From Aminobacter carboxidus (GTDB lineage Bacteria; Pseudomonadota; Alphaproteobacteria; Rhizobiales; Rhizobiaceae): 64,000 nucleotides of DNA. The stretch's first letter is position 1. Every line of letters starts with the position of its first letter. Position numbers and translations under genes: made by a program. The notes below the pieces were generated by a model. It was not told the origin of the DNA, ran no database searches, and was given only the letters and a program-made list of their open reading frames with translations. The stretch lies in contig NZ_JACZEP010000001.1 of assembly GCF_014863355.1 (NCBI RefSeq), positions 434,001 to 498,000 of the forward strand, written 5' to 3'. Shown here in pieces: positions 51,270 to 60,523 of the stretch.

Positions 51270-52430
51270 TCAGCCTTCCGCCATGATCTCGCGGCCGATC
51301 AGCCAGCGCCTGATCTCGCTGGTGCCGGCGCCGATCTCATAGAGTTTGGCGTCGCGCAGCAGCCGTCCGGTAGGATAGTCGTTGATGTAGCCGTTGCCGC
51401 CAAGCAGCTGCAGCGCATCGAGCGCCATCTGCGTGGCCTTTTCCGCTGCGAACAAAACGCAGCCGGCTGCGTCCTTGCGCGTCGTCTGGCCGCGGTCGCA
51501 GGCGGCGGCCACCGCATAGACATAGGCGCGTGCGGCATTCATCGTCGAATACATGTCGGCAAGCTTGCCTTGCACGAGCTGGAACTCGCCGATCGGCTGG
51601 CCGAACTGCTTGCGGTCGTGCACGTAGGGCACGGCCACGTCCATGCACGCCGCCATGATGCCGATCGGCCCGCCGGCCAGGACCACGCGCTCGTAGTCGA
51701 GGCCCGACATCAGCACTTCGACGCCACGGCCTTCCTCATGCAGCACGTTTTCGAACGGCACCTCGACGTTCTCGAACACCAGTTCGCCGGTGTTTGATCC
51801 GCGCATGCCGAGCTTGTCGAGCTTCTGCGCCACCGAAAAACCCTTCATCGTCTTTTCGATGATGAAGGCGGTGATGCCGCGCGATTTCCGCTCGGGATCG
51901 GTCTTGGCATAGACCACCAGCGTGTCGGCGTCAGGGCCGTTGGTGATCCACATCTTAGAGCCATTGAGCACATAGACATCGTTGCGCTTCTCGGCGCGGA
52001 GCCTGAGCGAGACGACGTCAGAACCCGAGCCGCTTTCCGACATGGCGAGCGCGCCGACATTTTCGCCCGAACACAGCTTGGGCAGGTATTTCGCCTTCTG
52101 ATCCGGCGTGCCCCAGCGCTTGATCTGGTTGACGCACAAGTTCGAATGCGCGCCATAGGACAGGCCGACGGAGGCCGAGGCGCGGGAGATTTCCTCGACG
52201 GCGACGACATGGGCAATGTAGCCCATTTCCGAGCCGCCATACTCGCCTTCGGCGGTGATGCCGAGCAGGCCGAGCGCGCCGAGCTCCTGCCACAGATGCG
52301 CGGGGAATTCGTTCGAGCGGTCGATGTCGGCGGCGATCGGCGCAATGCGCTCCTGGGCGAAGCGCCGCACCATCTCGCGCAGGCTGTCTATGTCCTCACC
52401 GAGCCCGAAGTTCAGCGTCTTGTCGTACAT
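51270..52430 (-). CDS. ivd: Isovaleryl-CoA dehydrogenase
   Basis: A 386-residue acyl-CoA dehydrogenase that oxidises isovaleryl-CoA to 3-methylcrotonyl-CoA, with FAD as cofactor and ETF as acceptor. Signatures: [28 protein letters not shown], and the C-terminal [19 protein letters not shown]. The Glu in [16 protein letters not shown] aligns with the catalytic base position special to isovaleryl-CoA dehydrogenases (Glu254 in the human enzyme), which separates it from the short- and medium-chain enzymes. ATG 52430 starts MYDKTLNF. Its 5' end overlaps the tetR gene by 35 bases. Confidence 0.92.
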
Positions 52431-53040
52431 GGCGGTCCTCCGCATTGGTCTTGGCGCCGGTCAGGCGCATCGTCATGGCAAGGTAGGTCGCGGTCACTTC
52501 GTCGACCGACAGTCTCTCATCGGGACGAAACCACACGATGACGCCCGTGATCATCTGGATGATCGCCATTGCGGTCAGTCCGGTGTCGTCGATATCAAGC
52601 AAGCCCGCGTCAGCACCGTCGCGCAGGATTGTCCTGAGCTCCTTTTCGTAGGCCGTGCGGAGCTTGAGGATGCTGGTCAGATTATCGCGCGAAAGGCTGC
52701 GCAGTTCCATGTTCGAGACATGGGTAGCGTGGCGGCGTTCGACGTGGAAACGGATGTGGTTGGCGACAAAGCTGGTCAGCCGCGCCACCGGATCGTCATT
52801 GTCGGGGCGGGCACCTTCCCAGGTCGCGGCCAGCTCTTCCATGTGCTCGCGCATCAGCGAATGGAGCAAGTCTTCCTTGGTCGGGAAATAGCGGTACAGC
52901 GCAGCGGCCTGGACGCCGACTTCCGCCGCCAATTGGCGCATCGTCACGGCTTCATAGCCATGGCGCGCGATCAGCTGCACGGCCGCCTCGCGTATCGCCG
53001 CCTCCGTCCTGCCTCCGTCCGAACCCGCAGTTCGCGCCAT
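52396..53040 (-). CDS. TetR-family regulator of the leucine degradation genes
   Basis: A 214-residue regulator: N-terminal helix-turn-helix (about residues 12-58, [20 protein letters not shown] then [19 protein letters not shown]) and a C-terminal ligand-binding domain of the TetR_C type (about 80-200). It overlaps ivd by 35 bases and is the first gene of the transcript, so it most likely senses an acyl-CoA intermediate and controls itself and ivd. The last 20 residues are charged and overlap the ivd start. A long palindrome lies 21 bases upstream of its start. Confidence 0.88.
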
Positions 53041-53061
53041 TCAGTCATTCCTCTCGAATGG

Positions 53062-53095
53062 TTGAATTAATAAAACGAACGTTTCATTAATTCAA
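53062..53095. promoter_or_regulatory. 34-bp near-perfect palindrome, likely TetR operator
   Basis: Arms TTGAATTAAT (53062-53071) and ATTAATTCAA (53086-53095) enclose a second inverted pair AAACG (53073-53077) and CGTTT (53080-53084) around a two-base centre. Fifteen of 17 positions are symmetrical. It lies 22 bases upstream of tetR and 41 bases beyond the end of the secretion genes, so it should serve the tetR promoter. Confidence 0.75.
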
Positions 53096-53135
53096 GAGGC
53101 GACCGTCAGCTCACTGTGGACTGACCTGGTGTGGC

Positions 53136-54560
53136 TCAGTCGCTGCGGAAGGCGCGGCTGGCCTGGTCGGTCAGCGGCTTGAACAGATAGGAAAGCACCG
53201 TACGGTCGGTGGTCTTGAGGAACACCTCGGCTGGCATGCCTGGCTTGAGGTCCGGCTTGCCCGCCTGTTCCAGGCTCTTGGCCGACAGGGTGATGCGCAC
53301 GCCATAATAGGCGATGCCGGCCTTCGGATCCTCGATCATGTCGGGTGAAATACGGTCGACAGTGCCTTCTACCTCGGGCGTGGTCTGCTGGTTGAACGCC
53401 GAGAGCCTGAGCGTTGCCGGCTGGCCGATGCGGACCTGGTCGATGTCCTGCGGCGCAATTCGGGCCTCGACCACCAGGGCGTCCGCCGTCGGCACGATCT
53501 GCATGATCGCTTCGCCGGGGGCGACGACGCCGCCGACGGTGTGAATGGCCATCTGGTGGACGCGGCCCGATTGCGGCGCGCGGATGTCGATCTGCCTCAG
53601 CGACTGCTCGGCGGCGACCTGCCGTTCCCTGAGCTCGCCTGCCTTGGCGTCGATCTCGCGCAGTTCGCTCGCCACCTGGCTGCGCATATCCTGGTCGATC
53701 TGGATGATCGCCAGTTCCGTCTCGCTGATCCGGCCGCGCGTCTGCGCAGCAGATGCTGTCAACTGGCCGTCCTCGCCGTCGAGCTGCGCCTGCGCGCGCT
53801 GGCGGTCCGCCAGGCGGGAGAGGGGCACGAGCTTCTTCTTCCACAACACTTCCATGCCATCGAGTTCGACCTTGATCAGGGCGATCTCCTGCTTTTTGCT
53901 CTTCTGCTGGGCCTCGATCCCGGAGATTTCCTGGCCGAACTGGGCAATGCGCTCGCGCAACTGCGATACCTGGCCGTCACGTGCCTGCCGCCTGAGCGAA
54001 AACACCTTGTTTTCGCCTTCGATCAGCTGGGCGATTTCAGGATCGGACGCACGCGTCGTCAATTCCGCGGGATAGACGACCGTGTCGGCGCCGTCGCGCT
54101 CGGCCGTCAGCCGTGCGCGTCGCGCAGTCAGCTCGTCCAGGCCATTGTCGACGATGGCGAGATTGGCCTTGGCGACGGTGTCATCCAGCCTGACCAGCAC
54201 TTCGCCTGCCGAAACGACGCTGCCATTGTGCACGTTCAGCGCCCCGACCACACCGCCTTGCGGATGCTGCACTGCCTTGACGTTGGAATCGACGACCAGG
54301 TGACCTGCAGCGACCACTGCACCCGACAGGCTGCTCATCCCTGCCCACAGGCCAAGCCCGCCGACCAGTGCCAGCGCGGCAACGCCGCCCAGCCGCACGT
54401 TGCGCCTGATGGCATGGCGCAGCCTCAGCTGTTGCGGCGATGCGCCTTCGATAGGCTTGGCGCCTTTGTCGAGCAGCGCAAGTGCCCGGCTCTTCACGGA
54501 AGCCGCAAGATCCCGCGCGGTCTTGAGGTGTGCAGCAGAAGGGGTCGTCACAAGTGTCAT
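53136..54560 (-). CDS. prsE: Type I secretion membrane fusion protein (HlyD/PrsE family)
   Basis: A 474-residue periplasmic adaptor with a cytoplasmic N-terminus (about 55 residues), one membrane helix (LGGVAALALVGGLGLWAGM), a long coiled-coil hairpin (about residues 140-300, with repeated Gln/Glu/Arg heptads) and a lipoyl/barrel-sandwich domain ending VFLKTTDRTVLSYLFKPL. It links the ABC transporter to an outer-membrane TolC-type channel not encoded here. It starts two bases after the ABC transporter stop, so they form one operon with the CAP protein gene. Confidence 0.92.
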   Translation of the reverse strand: MTLVTTPSAAHLKTARDLAASVKSRALALLDKGAKPIEGASPQQLRLRHAIRRNVRLGGVAALALVGGLGLWAGMSSLSGAVVAAGHLVVDSNVKAVQHPQGGVVGALNVHNGSVVSAGEVLVRLDDTVAKANLAIVDNGLDELTARRARLTAERDGADTVVYPAELTTRASDPEIAQLIEGENKVFSLRRQARDGQVSQLRERIAQFGQEISGIEAQQKSKKQEIALIKVELDGMEVLWKKKLVPLSRLADRQRAQAQLDGEDGQLTASAAQTRGRISETELAIIQIDQDMRSQVASELREIDAKAGELRERQVAAEQSLRQIDIRAPQSGRVHQMAIHTVGGVVAPGEAIMQIVPTADALVVEARIAPQDIDQVRIGQPATLRLSAFNQQTTPEVEGTVDRISPDMIEDPKAGIAYYGVRITLSAKSLEQAGKPDLKPGMPAEVFLKTTDRTVLSYLFKPLTDQASRAFRSD

Positions 54561-54562
54561 GG

Positions 54563-56302
54563 TCAGCCTGCCGTCCCCACCGCATGCAGCGGCACTGGCA
54601 CCGGTTGCAGCGCCTGCCGCGCGATGTCGCTCTTCAAGCCAAAGGCCTGCTGCCTGCCGCCGCCAAGGACCAGCAGATGGTCCAGTGCCGCAAGCGCGCT
54701 CGGCCGGTGCGCCACCACGATAACGATGCCGCCGCGCGCCTTGATGCGCTCGATGGCTTGCGTCAGTGCCTGGTCGCCGGCTGCGTCGAGGTTGGAATTG
54801 GGTTCGTCGAGAACGACGAGGAACGGATCGCGGTAGAGCGCCCGCGCCAGCGCCACGCGCTGACGCTGCCCGGCTGAAAGGGCGGCGCCGCTTTCGCCGA
54901 TCTCGGTCTGATAGCCTTCAGGCAGGCGCAGGATCATGTCGTGCACGCCGGCCGCCTTCGCCGCCGCGATGATCGTCTCCGACAGCACTTCGTCCTCAAA
55001 GCGCGAGATGTTCTGGCCGACGGTTCCGGCGAACAGCTCGACATCCTGCGGCAGGTAGCCGACGTGGCGGCCGAGGGACTGCGCCGGCCATTGCTCGAGC
55101 GCTGCGCCGTCAAGCCTGATCTTGCCACGCGTCAGCGGCCATACACCGACAAGCGCGCGCGCAAGTGACGATTTTCCCGAACCACTGGGGCCGATAACGC
55201 CCATGCCGGAACCAGCCTGGAGCGAGAATTCGGCGTCCTGCACCACCAGCCGCCGGCCACCGGGCGCAACGACACTGACACCTTCCACCGCCAGTTCGGC
55301 GGTCGGTGGCGGAAGCTCCATGCCGGCTTCTTCGGCGGGCATGGCAGCGAACAGATCGTCCAGGCGGCGCCAGCTCTGGCGGGCATTGAGGAAGCCCTTC
55401 CAATGGGCAATGGCGAGTTCGATCGGCGCCAGCGCGCGCGAGGTCAGGATCGAGCTGGCAATGATGATGCCGGGCGTCGCCTGCTGGTAGATGACAAGGT
55501 AGGCGCCGAGCGCCAGCACCATCGACTGCAGCATCATGCGCAGGATGCGCGACACCGCGCCAAAACCACTGGTCAGGTCGCTGGCGCGCTCCTGCGCCTC
55601 GCGAAAATCGCTGTTGGCCTTGTTCCAGCGCGTCGCCAGCCGCTCGCTCATGCCCATCGCGGCCAGCACCTCGGCATTGCGGGCGCTCGACTGCGCAATG
55701 GCGCTTCGTCTCGTGCTGAAAGCCGACATCGCCTTGGTCGGCCCCCGCACCAGCCGGTCAGTCAGCACGGTCAGCACAACAAGCAGCACCGCGCCGACAA
55801 GCGCCGCGACGCCAATCCATGGGTGAAAGAGAAAACAGATGCCGACATAAAGCGGCATCCAGGGCAGGTCGAACAGCGCGGCGGGGCCGGGGCCTGAGAG
55901 AAAACCGCTGACCTGGTCGAGGTCGCGCAGCGCCTGCAGGCCTTCGCCGCGGTCGCGGGTGCGCAGCGGCAGGCGCACGATGCAGCTGAAGACCCGGTTG
56001 CTTATGGTTTCGTCGATACCGGCACCGATCCGCGTCAGCACCCGTGCCCGCACCGCTTCCAGCACGCCCTGGAATGCGTAGAGCACCGCCACCAGGATGA
56101 TCAGCGCCACAAGTGTCGGCACGCTGCGGCTCGGCAGCACGCGGTCATAGACCTGCAGCATGAACAGCGAGCCGGACAGCATCAGGACATTGATCAGGCC
56201 GCTGAAGCCGGCAACGGCGACGAAGGCGCCCTTGAACGAATGCAGCGCCTTGAAAAGCTCTGACGTGCGGTTCAGGTCAGTGGACGGTTGAGACAGGGTC
56301 AT
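54563..56302 (-). CDS. prsD: Type I secretion ABC transporter/permease (PrsD family)
   Basis: A 579-residue half-transporter with six membrane helices in the first 300 residues (for example FVAVAGFSGLINVLMLSGSL) and a C-terminal ATPase: Walker A GPSGSGKSSLA, signature ALSAGQRQRVALARAL, Walker B FLVVLDEPNSNLD and the switch His in VAHRP. No C39 peptidase-like domain is at the N-terminus, so substrates are not processed. It powers export of the adjacent CAP-domain protein or other substrates. The gene is 84 bases downstream of the CAP gene. Confidence 0.93.
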   Translation of the reverse strand: MTLSQPSTDLNRTSELFKALHSFKGAFVAVAGFSGLINVLMLSGSLFMLQVYDRVLPSRSVPTLVALIILVAVLYAFQGVLEAVRARVLTRIGAGIDETISNRVFSCIVRLPLRTRDRGEGLQALRDLDQVSGFLSGPGPAALFDLPWMPLYVGICFLFHPWIGVAALVGAVLLVVLTVLTDRLVRGPTKAMSAFSTRRSAIAQSSARNAEVLAAMGMSERLATRWNKANSDFREAQERASDLTSGFGAVSRILRMMLQSMVLALGAYLVIYQQATPGIIIASSILTSRALAPIELAIAHWKGFLNARQSWRRLDDLFAAMPAEEAGMELPPPTAELAVEGVSVVAPGGRRLVVQDAEFSLQAGSGMGVIGPSGSGKSSLARALVGVWPLTRGKIRLDGAALEQWPAQSLGRHVGYLPQDVELFAGTVGQNISRFEDEVLSETIIAAAKAAGVHDMILRLPEGYQTEIGESGAALSAGQRQRVALARALYRDPFLVVLDEPNSNLDAAGDQALTQAIERIKARGGIVIVVAHRPSALAALDHLLVLGGGRQQAFGLKSDIARQALQPVPVPLHAVGTAG

Positions 56303-56338
56303 TCCCCTCGATGGCGGTCAATTGATTGACTGCAATGC

Positions 56339-56371
56339 GGCGGGCCTCGCCGAAACAAAGCCCGCCTTTTT
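56339..56371 (+). terminator. Hairpin between the CAP gene and the transporter gene
   Basis: GGCGGGC (56339-56345) pairs with GCCCGCC (56360-56366), followed by TTTTT on the plus strand. No plus-strand gene ends here, so its main role is more likely on the minus-strand transcript, where it forms a hairpin between the first and second genes of the operon. That may lower transporter expression relative to the substrate. Confidence 0.45.
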
Positions 56372-56386
56372 GGCGTCGCCAGAAAA

Positions 56387-57631
56387 TCAGGCGACGACGT
56401 CGGCGTTCTGATGGCCCGAATGGGCCGCCATCTGCGCCAGGATCTTGGCGACCGCTGCCTGGGCTGCGTCGCCTGCATCTGCCACCGCGTGACCATCCGC
56501 CGGCAGATGGGCCTGCAGCGTCGCGACAACGTGGTCGATGGCCTGCTGCACATGCCTGCCATCGACGATGTCGTTGACGTGATCGGCATTCACATGTGCT
56601 GCCACCTTCGAGCTGAAGCTGAAGTGGTCGCCGTCGAGCGTCACCGACTTCTTGGCAGAAGTCTCAGTGGAGCCGGCCACCTCGCGTACGCCGCGCGTAC
56701 CCTGGTCGCCGCGCGTACCCTGGTCCTGGCCGAAGTGGTCCATCTTCTTGAAGAAGTCGGCGAGCCAGTTGTTTGCTGGGTTTGCGCCCGCATTGTTGCC
56801 GCCGGTCGTAGCGCCGCCGGTATCGGTGCTGTCGGCAACGTCGACCACCTTGGTCGGCGTCGTCGGCGCGGCCGCGCCTGCATCATCAGCCGAAGCCGTT
56901 GCTGCGAGCGTGCCCGACTTCATCACCGGATCGATCAGGTCCTTCTTGACGTTCTTGGTGCCGATCGTCGCCGTCTGAGTCGACGTCGCGATGTTGGCGC
57001 CCGAGAAGGTGACCGTGTAGGTGCCAGGCTTCAGCACCAGGTCGTAGCCGCCCGCCGCTGACGTCGTGGTCTTGAAAGTCTGGCCGGCGGCGTTCTTGGC
57101 CGTCACCGTGATCGCGCCAAGACCTTCGCCCGGGTCGTAGAAGCGGTCGCCGTCCTTGTCGTCGAAGGTGACGCCGGTCAGGAACAGGTCGGAACCTGTC
57201 TTGGCGAAATCTTCGGTGACGAAGGCTGATGAGCGGCCCTTGTAGTCGCCGACCTCGAATCCAAGCCCGACTTCGCGGAAGTTCGGGTTGAGGATGTTGG
57301 CCCGGTGACCCGAGGAATTCATCAGGTTGGTGTGAAGCAGCTTCACTTCATCGACATAGCCTGTCGGCGCGCGGGTGGTCGCCCAGGCGATGTTTTCGCC
57401 GGTTGCCCAGGAGCCGCTGAGCGTATAGCCGGCCGCCTTCATGCGTGTTGTCGGCGACGTGCCGCCGGAACCTGTGTGTGAGAAGACATCCGCCGAGAGC
57501 ATCCACTTGTCGTGGTTTTCGGCGGCTTCACTCAGGTCGTTGTCGAATGCCAGAGGCTGGGCGCCGGTCTTGGCGCGCTCCGCGTTGATGAGCTCGAGCA
57601 GATACTGCTCGTTGGCACTGTGTTGCGGCAT
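56387..57631 (-). CDS. CAP (SCP/PR-1)-domain protein, likely type I secretion substrate
   Basis: A 414-residue protein without a signal peptide. Residues about 7-142 form a CAP domain with the His/Glu/His set: His52 in DVFSHTG, Glu79 in WATGENIAW and His109 in SSGHRANILNPNF. Next is an SdrD/Cna-B-like domain (about 150-235) with a calcium-loop-like DDKDGDRFYDPGEG. A Thr/Ala/Gly-rich linker with a short tandem repeat (DQGTRGDQGTRG) follows, then a His-rich C-terminal region (about 330-414). No GGXGXD repeats are seen. Lack of a signal peptide plus an adjacent type I transporter and adaptor imply export through them. CAP proteins in bacteria may bind lipids or act as proteases; the role is unknown. 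Confidence 0.85.
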   Translation of the reverse strand: MPQHSANEQYLLELINAERAKTGAQPLAFDNDLSEAAENHDKWMLSADVFSHTGSGGTSPTTRMKAAGYTLSGSWATGENIAWATTRAPTGYVDEVKLLHTNLMNSSGHRANILNPNFREVGLGFEVGDYKGRSSAFVTEDFAKTGSDLFLTGVTFDDKDGDRFYDPGEGLGAITVTAKNAAGQTFKTTTSAAGGYDLVLKPGTYTVTFSGANIATSTQTATIGTKNVKKDLIDPVMKSGTLAATASADDAGAAAPTTPTKVVDVADSTDTGGATTGGNNAGANPANNWLADFFKKMDHFGQDQGTRGDQGTRGVREVAGSTETSAKKSVTLDGDHFSFSSKVAAHVNADHVNDIVDGRHVQQAIDHVVATLQAHLPADGHAVADAGDAAQAAVAKILAQMAAHSGHQNADVVA

Positions 57632-57826
57632 TGGGTATCCCCGATTTGGTTCTTGACTGGTGTTGAACCCCCTGTGTCCCCGTCCGCCCGACATCCGGCC
57701 TAGGCAGGAACTGTGTTGATGATGCGGCGTGGAAATGAATAAATTAGGATATACGCATATATCTTCGCGCAGGCATACACTGTAGCGATTCTGCCGCCTA
57801 CCGACGGTTGAAAATGCCTGTTGCGA

Positions 57827-58939
57827 TCAGCAGTCGCGGGCCGCAGCGATTGCCTTCGGAAGCTCCTCGGCGAAGATGTCGAGTTCGTGGTCGAGGCCGA
57901 CGCTCACCCGGATGCAGCGGTCGAGTACCGGCGCCATCGGTTTGCGGATGAACACGTCACGCTCGAGCATGTTGCGCATCACCGCCAGCGCAAACGCAGC
58001 GTCGCCGCCGCAGTCGATGGTGACGAAGTTTGTCGCCGAAGGCAGCGGCTTCAGCCCGTTGTCCCCAGCGATCCTGGCGATTCGCTTGCGTCCGGCGTCG
58101 ACCTTGGCGACGACGTCAGCGAGATAGGCCTGGTCGGCGAGCGCTTCTTCACCTGCGATCTGTGCCATGCGGCTGACGCCGTAGTGATTGCGCACCTTCT
58201 CGAAACTCGCGATCACCTCGGCGTCGCCAAAGGCATAGCCGCAACGGATGCCGGCAAGCCCATACGCCTTGGAGAAGGTGCGCATGCGCACGACATTCGG
58301 CCTGGAGATGTCGACCGGCGGCAGCGCCGAGGCGGGTGCGGTCTCGCCATAGGCTTCGTCCAGCACCAGCATCGTCGTTTCGGGCAACGCTTCGATGAAA
58401 CGCAGCACATCGTCCGCCTCCCACCAACTGCCCATCGGATTGTCGGGATTGGACAGATAGACGATAGGCGCATTCTCGCGCTTCACCGCGTCGAGCAGGC
58501 CTTGAAGATCTTCCTTGTCGTTGCGGAACGCAACCGGCACCAGCCGGGCACCGACGCTGGCGACATGGAAATTGAAGGTCGGGTAGGCGCCGAGCGAAGT
58601 CACGACAGGCGTACTCTCGGTCGCATACATGCGCACGACGAGGTTGAGCAGGCCGTCGATGCCTTCGCCGACAACGACATTGTCGACGCCGAGCCCGAGA
58701 TGGCGCGCCAGTGCGACCTTGAGATCGTAATTATCCGGATCGCAGTATTTCCACATCTCGGCCGCGGCCTCGGCCATCCGTGCGATCACGCGCGGAGAAG
58801 GTCCAAAACCGCTCTCATTGGCACCGATTCGGGCGCGAAACGGCGTGCCGCGATCGCGCTCCTGTGCCTCCGGCCCGACAAACGGCACGGTAACAGGCAG
58901 GGCGTTGATGACGGGCGTGAGGGCAGGGCGGTTGATCAT
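57827..58939 (-). CDS. Histidinol-phosphate aminotransferase-like PLP enzyme
   Basis: A 370-residue fold type I aminotransferase. The PLP Lys is in RTFSKAYGLAGIRCGYAFG near residue 223; IGANESGFGPSPRV at the start and YLSNPDNPMGSWW are typical of HisC-type enzymes. Substrates may be histidinol phosphate or an aromatic amino acid; no his genes are near, so a paralogue rather than the biosynthetic hisC is likely. The start is ATG 58939 (MINRPALTPVINAL); a 41-residue extension to 59062 is made of palindromic repeat DNA and is rejected. Confidence 0.88.
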   Translation of the reverse strand: MINRPALTPVINALPVTVPFVGPEAQERDRGTPFRARIGANESGFGPSPRVIARMAEAAAEMWKYCDPDNYDLKVALARHLGLGVDNVVVGEGIDGLLNLVVRMYATESTPVVTSLGAYPTFNFHVASVGARLVPVAFRNDKEDLQGLLDAVKRENAPIVYLSNPDNPMGSWWEADDVLRFIEALPETTMLVLDEAYGETAPASALPPVDISRPNVVRMRTFSKAYGLAGIRCGYAFGDAEVIASFEKVRNHYGVSRMAQIAGEEALADQAYLADVVAKVDAGRKRIARIAGDNGLKPLPSATNFVTIDCGGDAAFALAVMRNMLERDVFIRKPMAPVLDRCIRVSVGLDHELDIFAEELPKAIAAARDC

Positions 58940-58990
58940 GGCAGCATACTCGATGGCGTCATCCGCCCCGAACCAGGTGCGGAAATCTCT

Positions 58991-59104
58991 GGTGCATGAC
59001 CCCGAAAATCGGAATCGATTTTCGGAAAGGCTCATGCACCGTTTCAAAAATCTCTGGTGCATGACCCCGAAAATCGGAATCGATTTCGGAAAGGATCATG
59101 CACC
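58991..59104. repeat. Two tandem palindromic repeats (CCCGAAAATCG family)
   Basis: Two copies of the palindrome GGTGCATGACCCCGAAAATC...CATGCACC, at 58991-59040 and 59056-59104, lie in direct orientation and share flanks (AAATCTCT before, GTTTCAAA after). Each folds into a hairpin. The second copy has lost one base in its central T-run. They lie directly upstream of the aminotransferase gene. Confidence 0.9.
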
Positions 59105-59115
59105 GTTTCAAAGTG

Positions 59116-59159
59116 CTACAGCGTCCTTTGCGCGTCCAATTGGACGCGCGGCGCTGTAG
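59116..59159. repeat. Second type of palindromic repeat
   Basis: CTACAGCG (59116-59123) and CGCTGTAG (59152-59159) enclose CGCGTCCAATTGGACGCG (59131-59148), itself a perfect palindrome. It is a separate palindromic family adjacent to the two repeats before it, forming a repeat cluster between the aminotransferase and the integrase remnant. Confidence 0.85.
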
Positions 59160-59304
59160 AACTTCGCCTATACGACAAAACCGGCAGCGCTTGCATGCGG
59201 TTTGTGATGGCCAACCTTGTTGAAAGGCAAGGCCAACCCACGGCATGAACCTCGTGCTGGTCCCATGCCGCTCAAGTTTGCCGCAGGCTGCCGTGGCGCC
59301 AACG

Positions 59305-59372
59305 AATCGCATCTCCAGCGCCGCTTCGGTACGCCGTCGAGGCCGTTGGTCGCGAGATGCGCATAGCGCATC
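59305..59372 (-). pseudogene. Decayed copy of the integrase 3' end
   Basis: On the minus strand this DNA encodes MRYAHLATNGLDG, almost the same as the C-terminal MRYAHLATNDLDR of the adjacent integrase, and the downstream bases also match (GAATCGC-TCT-CAG-GCCGCT pattern at 59305 and 59379). Several indels separate the copies. It is the tail of a second integrase copy with no catalytic Arg or His motifs left; the Tyr-containing end is all that remains. Confidence 0.75.
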
Positions 59373-59390
59373 CGCTAGCGAATCGCGTCT

Positions 59391-60323
59391 TCAGTGCCGC
59401 TCCAGCACCACCACGCAGCGGTCGAGATCGTTTGTCGCCAAATGCGCGTAACGCATCGTCATCGACAGTGTCTGGTGCCCGAGCCACATCTGCACGCGTC
59501 GGATGTCGATGCCGCCCTGGACGAGTCGTGAAGCGCAGGTGTGGCGCAGGATATGCGGCACCACCTGGTCATCGGCGCCCAAGCCGACCTCAGCCTTGGC
59601 TTCGTTCCAGATGGCCCGGAATTGCGGCTGTGTCAGCATGGCGAACGGTCCTTTCGGACGCGGTCCACGCTCAGCCGGCCATTTGGTGGTTTCTCTGGCC
59701 CGCCCTGTCAGGGGAATCGTGCGGCTGCGCCCGGATTTGGTGATCCAGAAGCTGACGCGGGTGTCCTGGATGTCGTTCCAGATCAGCCCGATCGCCTCGC
59801 CGAGGCGGCAGCCGGTGTCGACCAGGAATACCGAAAGACGGTAGGCGTCTTCGCTCTTGGCCTTGATGGCAGCAAAAAGCCTGTCTTCTTCCTCGAGTTC
59901 GAGAAAGCGGATTCGCCCCGCCCGCTCCTTCTGGCGGCGGAACTCGGGCAGGCTATGGATATCTCCCATTTTATAGGCCTTGCGCAGTAGTTTACTCAAA
60001 GCGGCCATCTTTCGATTGATGGTCGCGTTGCTGTTACCGCGTTGGCGCAGGGAGCCTGTCAGGCCGTCGAGCGTCTCTTGGGAAAAAGCACTGAAGCGTT
60101 CGCCAAGTAGAATCTCGTCGATCTCACCAATGAAGGAGCTGACGTTGTATTTGTGCTTACCGTCGTCCCAAAGAATGTCTTTATAAGATATAAAAAGGTC
60201 TATGACCCTGAATGACTTTACTTCTTTAACGCTATTGAAATTGTACGTTACCTTGCAATTCGTCATCAGGGCGGCAGAGTGATGGCCGCTCACAATGTGG
60301 TCCTTTGAAGTTGCTTTCTTCAT
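59391..60323 (-). CDS. Tyrosine recombinase/integrase
   Basis: A 310-residue site-specific recombinase. The catalytic set is complete: Arg in DTGCRLGEAIG, Lys in TKSGRSRTIP, His-X-X-Arg in PHILRHTCASR, His in WLGHQTLSM and the nucleophile Tyr in MTMRYAHLA. The N-terminal half (about residues 30-110) is lower in conservation and would bind arm sites. The start is ATG 60323; a longer frame adds 12 residues. No phage or conjugation genes adjoin it, so the element it belonged to has largely been lost or is very small. The base composition in the first 250 bases of the gene is more AT-rich than the neighbourhood. Confidence 0.9.
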   Translation of the reverse strand: MKKATSKDHIVSGHHSAALMTNCKVTYNFNSVKEVKSFRVIDLFISYKDILWDDGKHKYNVSSFIGEIDEILLGERFSAFSQETLDGLTGSLRQRGNSNATINRKMAALSKLLRKAYKMGDIHSLPEFRRQKERAGRIRFLELEEEDRLFAAIKAKSEDAYRLSVFLVDTGCRLGEAIGLIWNDIQDTRVSFWITKSGRSRTIPLTGRARETTKWPAERGPRPKGPFAMLTQPQFRAIWNEAKAEVGLGADDQVVPHILRHTCASRLVQGGIDIRRVQMWLGHQTLSMTMRYAHLATNDLDRCVVVLERH

Positions 60324-60523
60324 GAAAATTCCGGCAACCCTGCGGCGAAAAGCAGCCAAACGCTACTCTACGACGGGGCAACCGGCAAGCTGACGGTAAA
60401 AGCTTTCGGTTCGTGACGATCAGGGCAGGGGGAAATATCAATCCTGGCCTCAGCACCACGCGCCATACACTGTCGTTGCTCGTCCTCCGTTTGGCTCGAT
60501 ATCCCAGCGCATGCGGCTGGTAG

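What the first reader, a model, noticed from the sequence alone, without database searches (positions are those of the whole stretch)
53136..57631. Dedicated type I secretion locus for a CAP-domain protein without RTX repeats
The likely substrate has CAP and SdrD/Cna-B-like domains and a His-rich C-terminus but lacks a signal peptide and the GGXGXD repeats seen in most substrates of this transporter family. It is the first gene of the operon. A CAP protein as the cognate cargo of a PrsDE-type exporter would be an uncommon combination and might have a new C-terminal secretion signal.
Basis: partly seen in the sequence, partly recalled or inferred. Interest (0 to 1): 0.55.

Follow-up and report, generated by a model that had tools for sequence, protein, structure and literature searches.

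The report
Exporter paired with leaderless CAP protein
A soil bacterium carries a three-gene cluster that very probably pushes one unusual protein straight out of the cell; the pairing is real and conserved in close relatives, but exporting this kind of protein by this route is already familiar in related bacteria.

Summary
On the minus strand a leaderless 414-residue CAP protein without RTX repeats (57631-56387) is followed by a PrtD/PrsD-type ABC transporter and an HlyD-type adaptor. The genome is Aminobacter-like. CAP and transporter are adjacent in 10 of 10 named Aminobacter/Mesorhizobium loci. In 297 genomes of the family, the 7 whose transporter is at least 66% identical all have CAP directly upstream; the 49 with an ordinary PrsD (55-60%) do not. 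Best reading: a type I secretion locus with its own co-encoded cargo.

The combination is not rare: CAP proteins with RTX repeats are common in Rhodobacterales, and one is the dominant exoprotein of Ruegeria pomeroyi (published). The signal does not look new: 19 of 21 close orthologues end in aspartate plus 2-4 non-polar residues (background 43 of 751), as most RTX-bearing relatives do. Orthologues in Ensifer/Sinorhizobium and others keep this end without a neighbouring transporter.

The new part is modest: RTX-poor CAP cargo paired in cis with an exporter in three transporter groups (12 of 65 RTX-poor proteins, 0 of 57 RTX-bearing). Export itself is untested.

The parts
56387..57631 (-). Leaderless CAP protein, 414 aa: CAP domain ~1-145, transthyretin/SdrD-like domain ~148-240, low-confidence linker ~241-378, C-terminal block 379-414; likely type I cargo
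56387..56497 (-). Codons of the last 36 residues plus stop: putative C-terminal secretion signal (weakly predicted helix 382-403, end NADVVA)
   Evidence: conservation against the linker, end pattern, low-confidence helix; function inferred
56303..56386 (-). Gap with a GC-rich hairpin just after the CAP stop; no run of U
   Evidence: also present after unlinked CAP genes
54563..56302 (-). PrtD/PrsD-type ABC transporter, 579 aa, with Walker A (GPSGSGKSS) and signature (LSAGQRQR) visible in the sequence
53136..54560 (-). HlyD-type membrane-fusion adaptor, 474 aa

Best explanation
A type I secretion locus with a co-encoded RTX-less cargo. The CAP protein is made in the cytoplasm without an N-terminal signal. 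Its last ~36 residues (weak helix, then aspartate followed by non-polar residues) are recognised by the adjacent PrtD-type ABC transporter; with the HlyD-type adaptor and a TolC-family channel encoded elsewhere it is threaded unfolded across both membranes. Outside, the CAP and transthyretin/SdrD-like domains fold, perhaps helped by Ca2+ at a conserved acidic loop. Shown: gene order, its conservation, domain content, C-terminal conservation, TolC homologues in the genome. Inferred: that this cargo uses this transporter, use of TolC, Ca2+-driven folding. What the CAP domain does outside is unknown; a surface or inter-organism role is a guess.
For: Adjacent in 10 of 10 named Aminobacter/Mesorhizobium loci; 7 of 7 transporters at >=66% identity have CAP upstream against 0 of 49 genomes at 55-60%; further linked pairs in G164, G631, G450, G911 and G894. 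No RTX, no leader seen, no cysteine in 20 of 21 orthologues. C-terminal block 44% identical between groups against 19% for the linker. End of aspartate plus 2-4 non-polar residues in 19 of 21 orthologues, background 43 of 751. A relative 61% identical over the two domains carries real RTX repeats (PF00353 E 8e-20) and ends SDFLIV. TolC-family gene over cut-off in the genome.
Against: 6 of 16 named loci and 6 of 14 family genomes with this CAP have no transporter beside it. In the more distant linked proteins L126 and L127 the last 36 residues (13 of 36 identical each) are not clearly better kept than the linker (38 and 36 of 138); L126 lacks the end pattern. The pattern was chosen after seeing the sequences, and 22 of 48 RTX-poor Rhodobacterales relatives have it. 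No secretion data.
Confidence: 0.78

Rival explanations
1. The transporter is this genome's general PrsDE-like exporter and CAP is only the cargo beside it, as plyA lies beside prsDE; other cargo, such as the C15 RTX protein, uses it too.
For: No other transporter in the genome is above 36% identity. The RTX ORF on C15 has no transporter match on its contig. R. leguminosarum PrsDE is credited with at least thirteen proteins from scattered genes (PMC2275737 passages).
Against: The clade tracks CAP: 7 of 7 against 0 of 49. M. amorphae CCNWGS0123 has both this transporter (L020) and a 60% PrsD on a plasmid, so the two are not simple replacements in that strain.
Confidence: 0.4
2. An RTX-less, HasA-like case: CAP needs the chaperone SecB to stay unfolded, not Ca2+-controlled folding.
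For: HasA, which lacks RTX, needs SecB (PMC6891781 passages; PMC4648471 passages). The 579-residue transporter shows only transporter and ATPase domains, as described for HasD and PrtD (PMC8277102 passages).
Against: None direct; the conserved acidic loop and the long low-confidence linker could delay folding without a chaperone. Resemblance to HasA itself was not tested.
Confidence: 0.3
3. CAP is not the cargo: it is a cytoplasmic protein, and the neighbourhood is inherited by descent only.
For: Unlinked orthologues exist; no experiment.
Against: Same order recurs in separate transporter groups; close CAP relatives carry RTX repeats and a CAP-RTX protein without a signal peptide is abundant outside Ruegeria cells (PMC2953401 passages).
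Confidence: 0.08
4. The C-terminus is a new kind of secretion signal.
For: The C-terminal 36 residues are Ala-rich and weakly helical, whereas RTX C-termini are reported poor in helix (PMC8861453 passages).
Against: The last residues follow the same form as RTX-bearing relatives (40 of 52) and the enriched D[FL] reported for RTX proteins.
Confidence: 0.12

Closest known systems
Rhizobial PrsDE with PlyA (S. meliloti, R. leguminosarum)
   Same: Same transporter and adaptor families, about 58% identity to the S. meliloti pSymB transporter; plyA precedes prsDE and is a known cargo (PMC2275737 passages)
   Different: Separate clade; PrsDE serves many cargoes; no CAP upstream in the 49 genomes at 55-60%
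Ruegeria pomeroyi PaxA (YP_165496) and CAP-RTX proteins of Rhodobacterales
   Same: N-terminal CAP (SCP) domain, no signal peptide, exported; D-plus-non-polar ends in 40 of 52 RTX-bearing relatives (PMC2953401 passages)
   Different: Carry RTX-type repeats; no transporter beside PaxA and none directly downstream of the 52
HasA/HasDE of Serratia marcescens
   Same: RTX-less cargo; transporter without an added N-terminal domain (PMC8277102 passages)
   Different: Different, smaller, haem-binding cargo that needs SecB (PMC6891781 passages); no sequence comparison made here
Aquifex PrtD (5l22)
   Same: Best full-length solved relative of the transporter, E 3.3e-131
   Different: Cargo there are proteases, here a CAP protein

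Membership tests
Type I secretion system, PrtD/HlyD type | ABC transporter of the PrtD subfamily | tested here: met
   TIGR01842 742 bits, cut-off 510
Type I secretion system, PrtD/HlyD type | HlyD-type adaptor encoded beside it | tested here: met
   TIGR01843 386 bits, cut-off 209
Type I secretion system, PrtD/HlyD type | TolC-type outer membrane channel available | tested here: met
   TIGR01844: one match over cut-off on C1 (350 bits) and two below it on C19 and C23; none in the cluster. Use by this system not tested
Type I secretion system, PrtD/HlyD type | Cargo shown to be secreted in a transporter-dependent way | not testable with these tools
   needs a deletion and a supernatant assay
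RTX exoprotein | Ca2+-binding GGxGxD nonapeptide repeats | tested here: not met
   no motif by pattern; no PF00353 match listed up to E 1
CAP superfamily | CAP domain by profile | tested here: met
   PF00188, 63.6 bits, cut-off 21.1
CAP superfamily | CAP fold | tested here: met
   model against 4ifa Z 19.9, rmsd 1.7, 124 residues; 4d53 Z 18.7
CAP superfamily | Conserved His/Glu cavity residues | tested here: met
   H52, E79, H109 invariant and E120 nearly so in 47 relatives; their identity with the classical tetrad is recalled, not mapped
PrsD orthologue | Falls in the clade of S. meliloti PrsD | tested here: not met
   17 linked rows form their own clade (100/100), S. meliloti PrsD another of 16 rows (100/100)
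HasA-type cargo | SecB-dependent export | not testable with these tools
   needs a secB deletion

The most novel reading that the evidence does not exclude
CAP exoproteins of Alphaproteobacteria have more than once traded the RTX module for a private, cis-encoded transporter: with RTX gone, the Ca2+-binding transthyretin/SdrD-like domain and a disordered linker take over the hold-unfolded, fold-outside role, and a tailored C-terminal helix gives exclusive recognition by the partner transporter.
Probability: 0.2. Interest if true: 0.55.

Novelty: new variant of a known kind. Interest (0 to 1): 0.36.

Why it matters
RTX repeats are thought to keep type I cargo unfolded until it meets Ca2+ outside. 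A set of homologues with and without RTX, and with and without a transporter next door, sharing one C-terminal form, is a natural experiment on what RTX is needed for. It would also give an exporter to work with for the little-understood CAP proteins of plant-associated bacteria.

Tried and rejected
New C-terminal signal: not the default reading, because the end is shared with RTX-bearing relatives and with an ORF upstream of a PrsD (L082, ends NDWFI; glycanase-like by eye only). Rare combination: rejected. Mobile cassette: not favoured; by eye an aminotransferase lies upstream and an acyl-CoA dehydrogenase downstream in A. ciceronei L014 and M. amorphae L020 as in the window; the other linked loci were not checked for this. 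Known RNA element in 52000-60000: none over gathering score. Promoter scan: no site, uninformative. The first structure model, from 15 close orthologues, was poor (pLDDT 36) and was dropped; the second, from 47 relatives, was used. Hairpin after the CAP stop as a mark of the linked pair: rejected, because 7 of 7 unlinked orthologues examined have a strong one too; the hairpin alignment was not tested for covariation. The short C-terminal alignment was not used further.

Papers: PMC2275737, PMC6891781, PMC2953401, PMC7901474, PMC3933643, PMC8861453, PMC3034196, PMC8277102 and PMC4648471 were seen as found passages only; all others as search listings. PMC7901474 only lists an SCP-like outer-membrane lipoprotein, PMC3933643 has no mention of SCP, and the PMC3034196 passage found was off the question. 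That I found no paper on this locus rests on searches in the held library alone.

Full report
WHAT IS THERE. On the minus strand the window holds three genes in line: a 414-residue CAP protein (57631-56387), a 579-residue ABC transporter (56302-54563) and a 474-residue adaptor (54560-53136), with gaps of 84 and 2 bases. Pfam gives CAP at E 4e-17 and a carboxypeptidase-regulatory-like domain just over its cut-off; SdrD_B matches below its cut-off. NCBIfam names the transporter TIGR01842 (742 bits, cut-off 510) and the adaptor TIGR01843 (386 bits, cut-off 209). The best solved relative of the transporter is 5l22, which a review calls Aquifex PrtD (PMC8277102 passages). The genome has a second CAP gene, a 160-residue ORF with a lipoprotein-like N-terminus by eye. 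The window's CAP protein, by contrast, starts directly with the CAP domain, and its M1 is invariant in 15 aligned orthologues. Relatives place the genome in or near Aminobacter.

ARCHITECTURE. A model from 47 relatives has block-mean pLDDT above 80 for residues 1-240 (213 residues at 90 or more in all); 249-292 and 295-362 are below 50, and the C-terminal helices (358-375, 382-403) are of low confidence. The first domain matches CAP structures (4ifa Z 19.9, rmsd 1.7, 124 residues), the second transthyretin-like (5aq0 Z 10.8, rmsd 2.1, 80 residues) and SdrD B domains (10ps Z 10.6, rmsd 2.6, 88 residues). H52, E79 and H109 are invariant and E120 nearly so in the 47. An acidic loop (FDDKDGDRFYDPGEG) keeps D157, D158, D160, D162, D166 and E169 in all 15 close orthologues; calling it a Ca2+ site is inference. 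No RTX motif was found. Cysteine is absent in 20 of 21 orthologues.

LINKAGE IN NAMED GENOMES. A scan of genome contigs gave 16 relatives. CAP, transporter and adaptor are adjacent in the 10 Aminobacter and Mesorhizobium loci. In the other six (Ensifer, Mycoplana, Sinorhizobium, Rhizobium sp. GN54, two Azospirillum) no such transporter was found in the 11-15 kb held. A 40-kb stretch around the CAP gene of S. americanum CCGM7 has none either; in S. fredii NXT3 a 60% PrsD lies about 16 kb away on the same plasmid.

LINKAGE IN SURVEYS. Of 297 genomes of the family, 14 have the CAP protein at E<=1e-50. In 8 the transporter is next to it (G000, G051, G143, G207, G261, G086, G265, G164); in 6 it is not (G057, G100, G133, G145, G147, G263). 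Searching the 297 with the transporter finds 56 genomes at E<=1e-195, with a clean gap: 7 at 66-100% identity, each with CAP directly upstream, and 49 at 55-60%, of which only G147 has this CAP at that threshold, on another contig. G164 is a separate case: its adjacent transporter is only 48% identical. In a class-wide draw of 385 genomes 9 have a relative at E<=1e-25, G000 included; of the other eight, G631 and G450 are linked and six are not, in stretches of 14.5-17 kb.

CAP CARGO ELSEWHERE. In the order of G450, 93 of 292 genomes have a relative at E<=1e-25. Of 105 places I fetched 103; G450 and G548 had been read before. One gave no CAP ORF and two were cut by contig ends, leaving 100: 52 with three or more RTX-like motifs, 48 with fewer. 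A transporter lies directly downstream (within 1.5 kb, same strand) in 0 of the 52 and 2 of the 48. With the 22 family and class genomes added (for G051, G143 and G261 I used the matching named loci), 0 of 57 RTX-bearing and 12 of 65 RTX-poor proteins are linked (Fisher p 3.6e-4). The rows are related, so that p-value overstates the case; the fair count is three transporter groups. In Ruegeria pomeroyi DSS-3 the most abundant exoprotein, PaxA, has an SCP (CAP) domain, a repeat linker and RTX-type repeats, no signal peptide and no transporter operon beside it (PMC2953401 passages).

TRANSPORTER TREE. Among 71 transporters the 17 linked window-type rows form one clade (100/100), L121 and L078 a second (100/100), and L125 stands apart with four unlinked rows; three changes are the least that starred branches force. 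The tool warns that three changes may be one gain and two losses, and that L125 is a long branch, so repeated gain is not proved. L170 and L172 go with L125 by identity (about 56%) but were not in the tree. S. meliloti PrsD lies in a separate clade. M. amorphae CCNWGS0123 has both types.

THE C-TERMINUS. Between the Aminobacter/Mesorhizobium group (11) and the Ensifer-type group (4) identity is 88% in CAP, 86% in the second domain, 19% in the linker and 44% in the last 36 residues. The end is aspartate plus 2-4 non-polar residues in 19 of 21 orthologues (not L026, L126), 40 of 52 RTX-bearing and 22 of 48 RTX-poor Rhodobacterales relatives, and 43 of 751 background ORF ends. The pattern was set after seeing the sequences, and the background contains spurious ORFs. 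A relative 61% identical over CAP and second domain (L118) has real RTX repeats (PF00353, E 8e-20) and ends SDFLIV. A published analysis finds [FLI][VAI] at the last two positions and D[FL] enriched in RTX C-termini, and 25 of 99 verified type I proteins without RTX motifs (PMC8861453 passages); the window's own end, DVVA, resembles but does not exactly match that form. A required C-terminal four-residue motif is known for PrtG; I saw only that title in a reference list, its make-up is recalled. Against this reading, in L126 and L127 the last 36 residues (13 of 36 identical) are not clearly better kept than the linker.

OTHER PARTS OF THE MACHINE. A TolC-family gene over cut-off lies far away on C1, with two below cut-off on C19 and C23. 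The next closest transporter in the genome is 36% identical. RTX motifs occur in two ORFs, on C15 and C23. The C23 ORF looks by eye like part of a large adhesin continued on C19, next to a transporter; C15 has no transporter match. So this pair could serve more than one cargo.

VERDICT. The cluster is most likely a type I secretion locus whose co-encoded cargo is an RTX-less CAP protein. Export, signal and folding trigger are inferred. It is a new variant of a known kind: known transporter family, known kind of cargo domain, known possibility of RTX-less cargo, in a conserved pairing for which I found no description in the searches listed under Tried and rejected.

Noticed in passing
56303-56386; same place in L013-L022, L126, L127: A strong GC-rich hairpin without a U-run follows the CAP stop in 13 of 13 linked loci (-22.5 to -35.7 kcal/mol; 11 of 13 beyond the 10th percentile, -25.5, of 109 control gene ends; median -16.5). 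It also follows 7 of 7 unlinked CAP genes.
   Followed up: partly
L069 (G000:C11:52000-66000): Second type I-like transporter and adaptor (36% identity) beside large ORFs, one with Asn-Glu-Asn-Lys repeats; possibly another RTX-less cargo system.
   Followed up: no
L067 (G000:C15:1-8641): RTX ORF of at least 2879 aa open at the contig start, with no transporter match on its contig.
   Followed up: partly
L068 (G000:C23 end) and L070 (G000:C19): A large repeat-rich RTX ORF runs into the end of C23 and an adhesin-like N-terminus beside a transporter runs into the start of C19; perhaps one gene split by the assembly.
   Followed up: no
L078, L121: A second linked lineage whose CAP proteins have long acidic Pro-Thr-Asp repeats and only 1-2 RTX-like motifs, a possible intermediate in RTX loss.
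   Followed up: partly
59391-60359: Phage-integrase family recombinase gene (PF00589) near the cluster, upstream of the aminotransferase gene.
   Followed up: no
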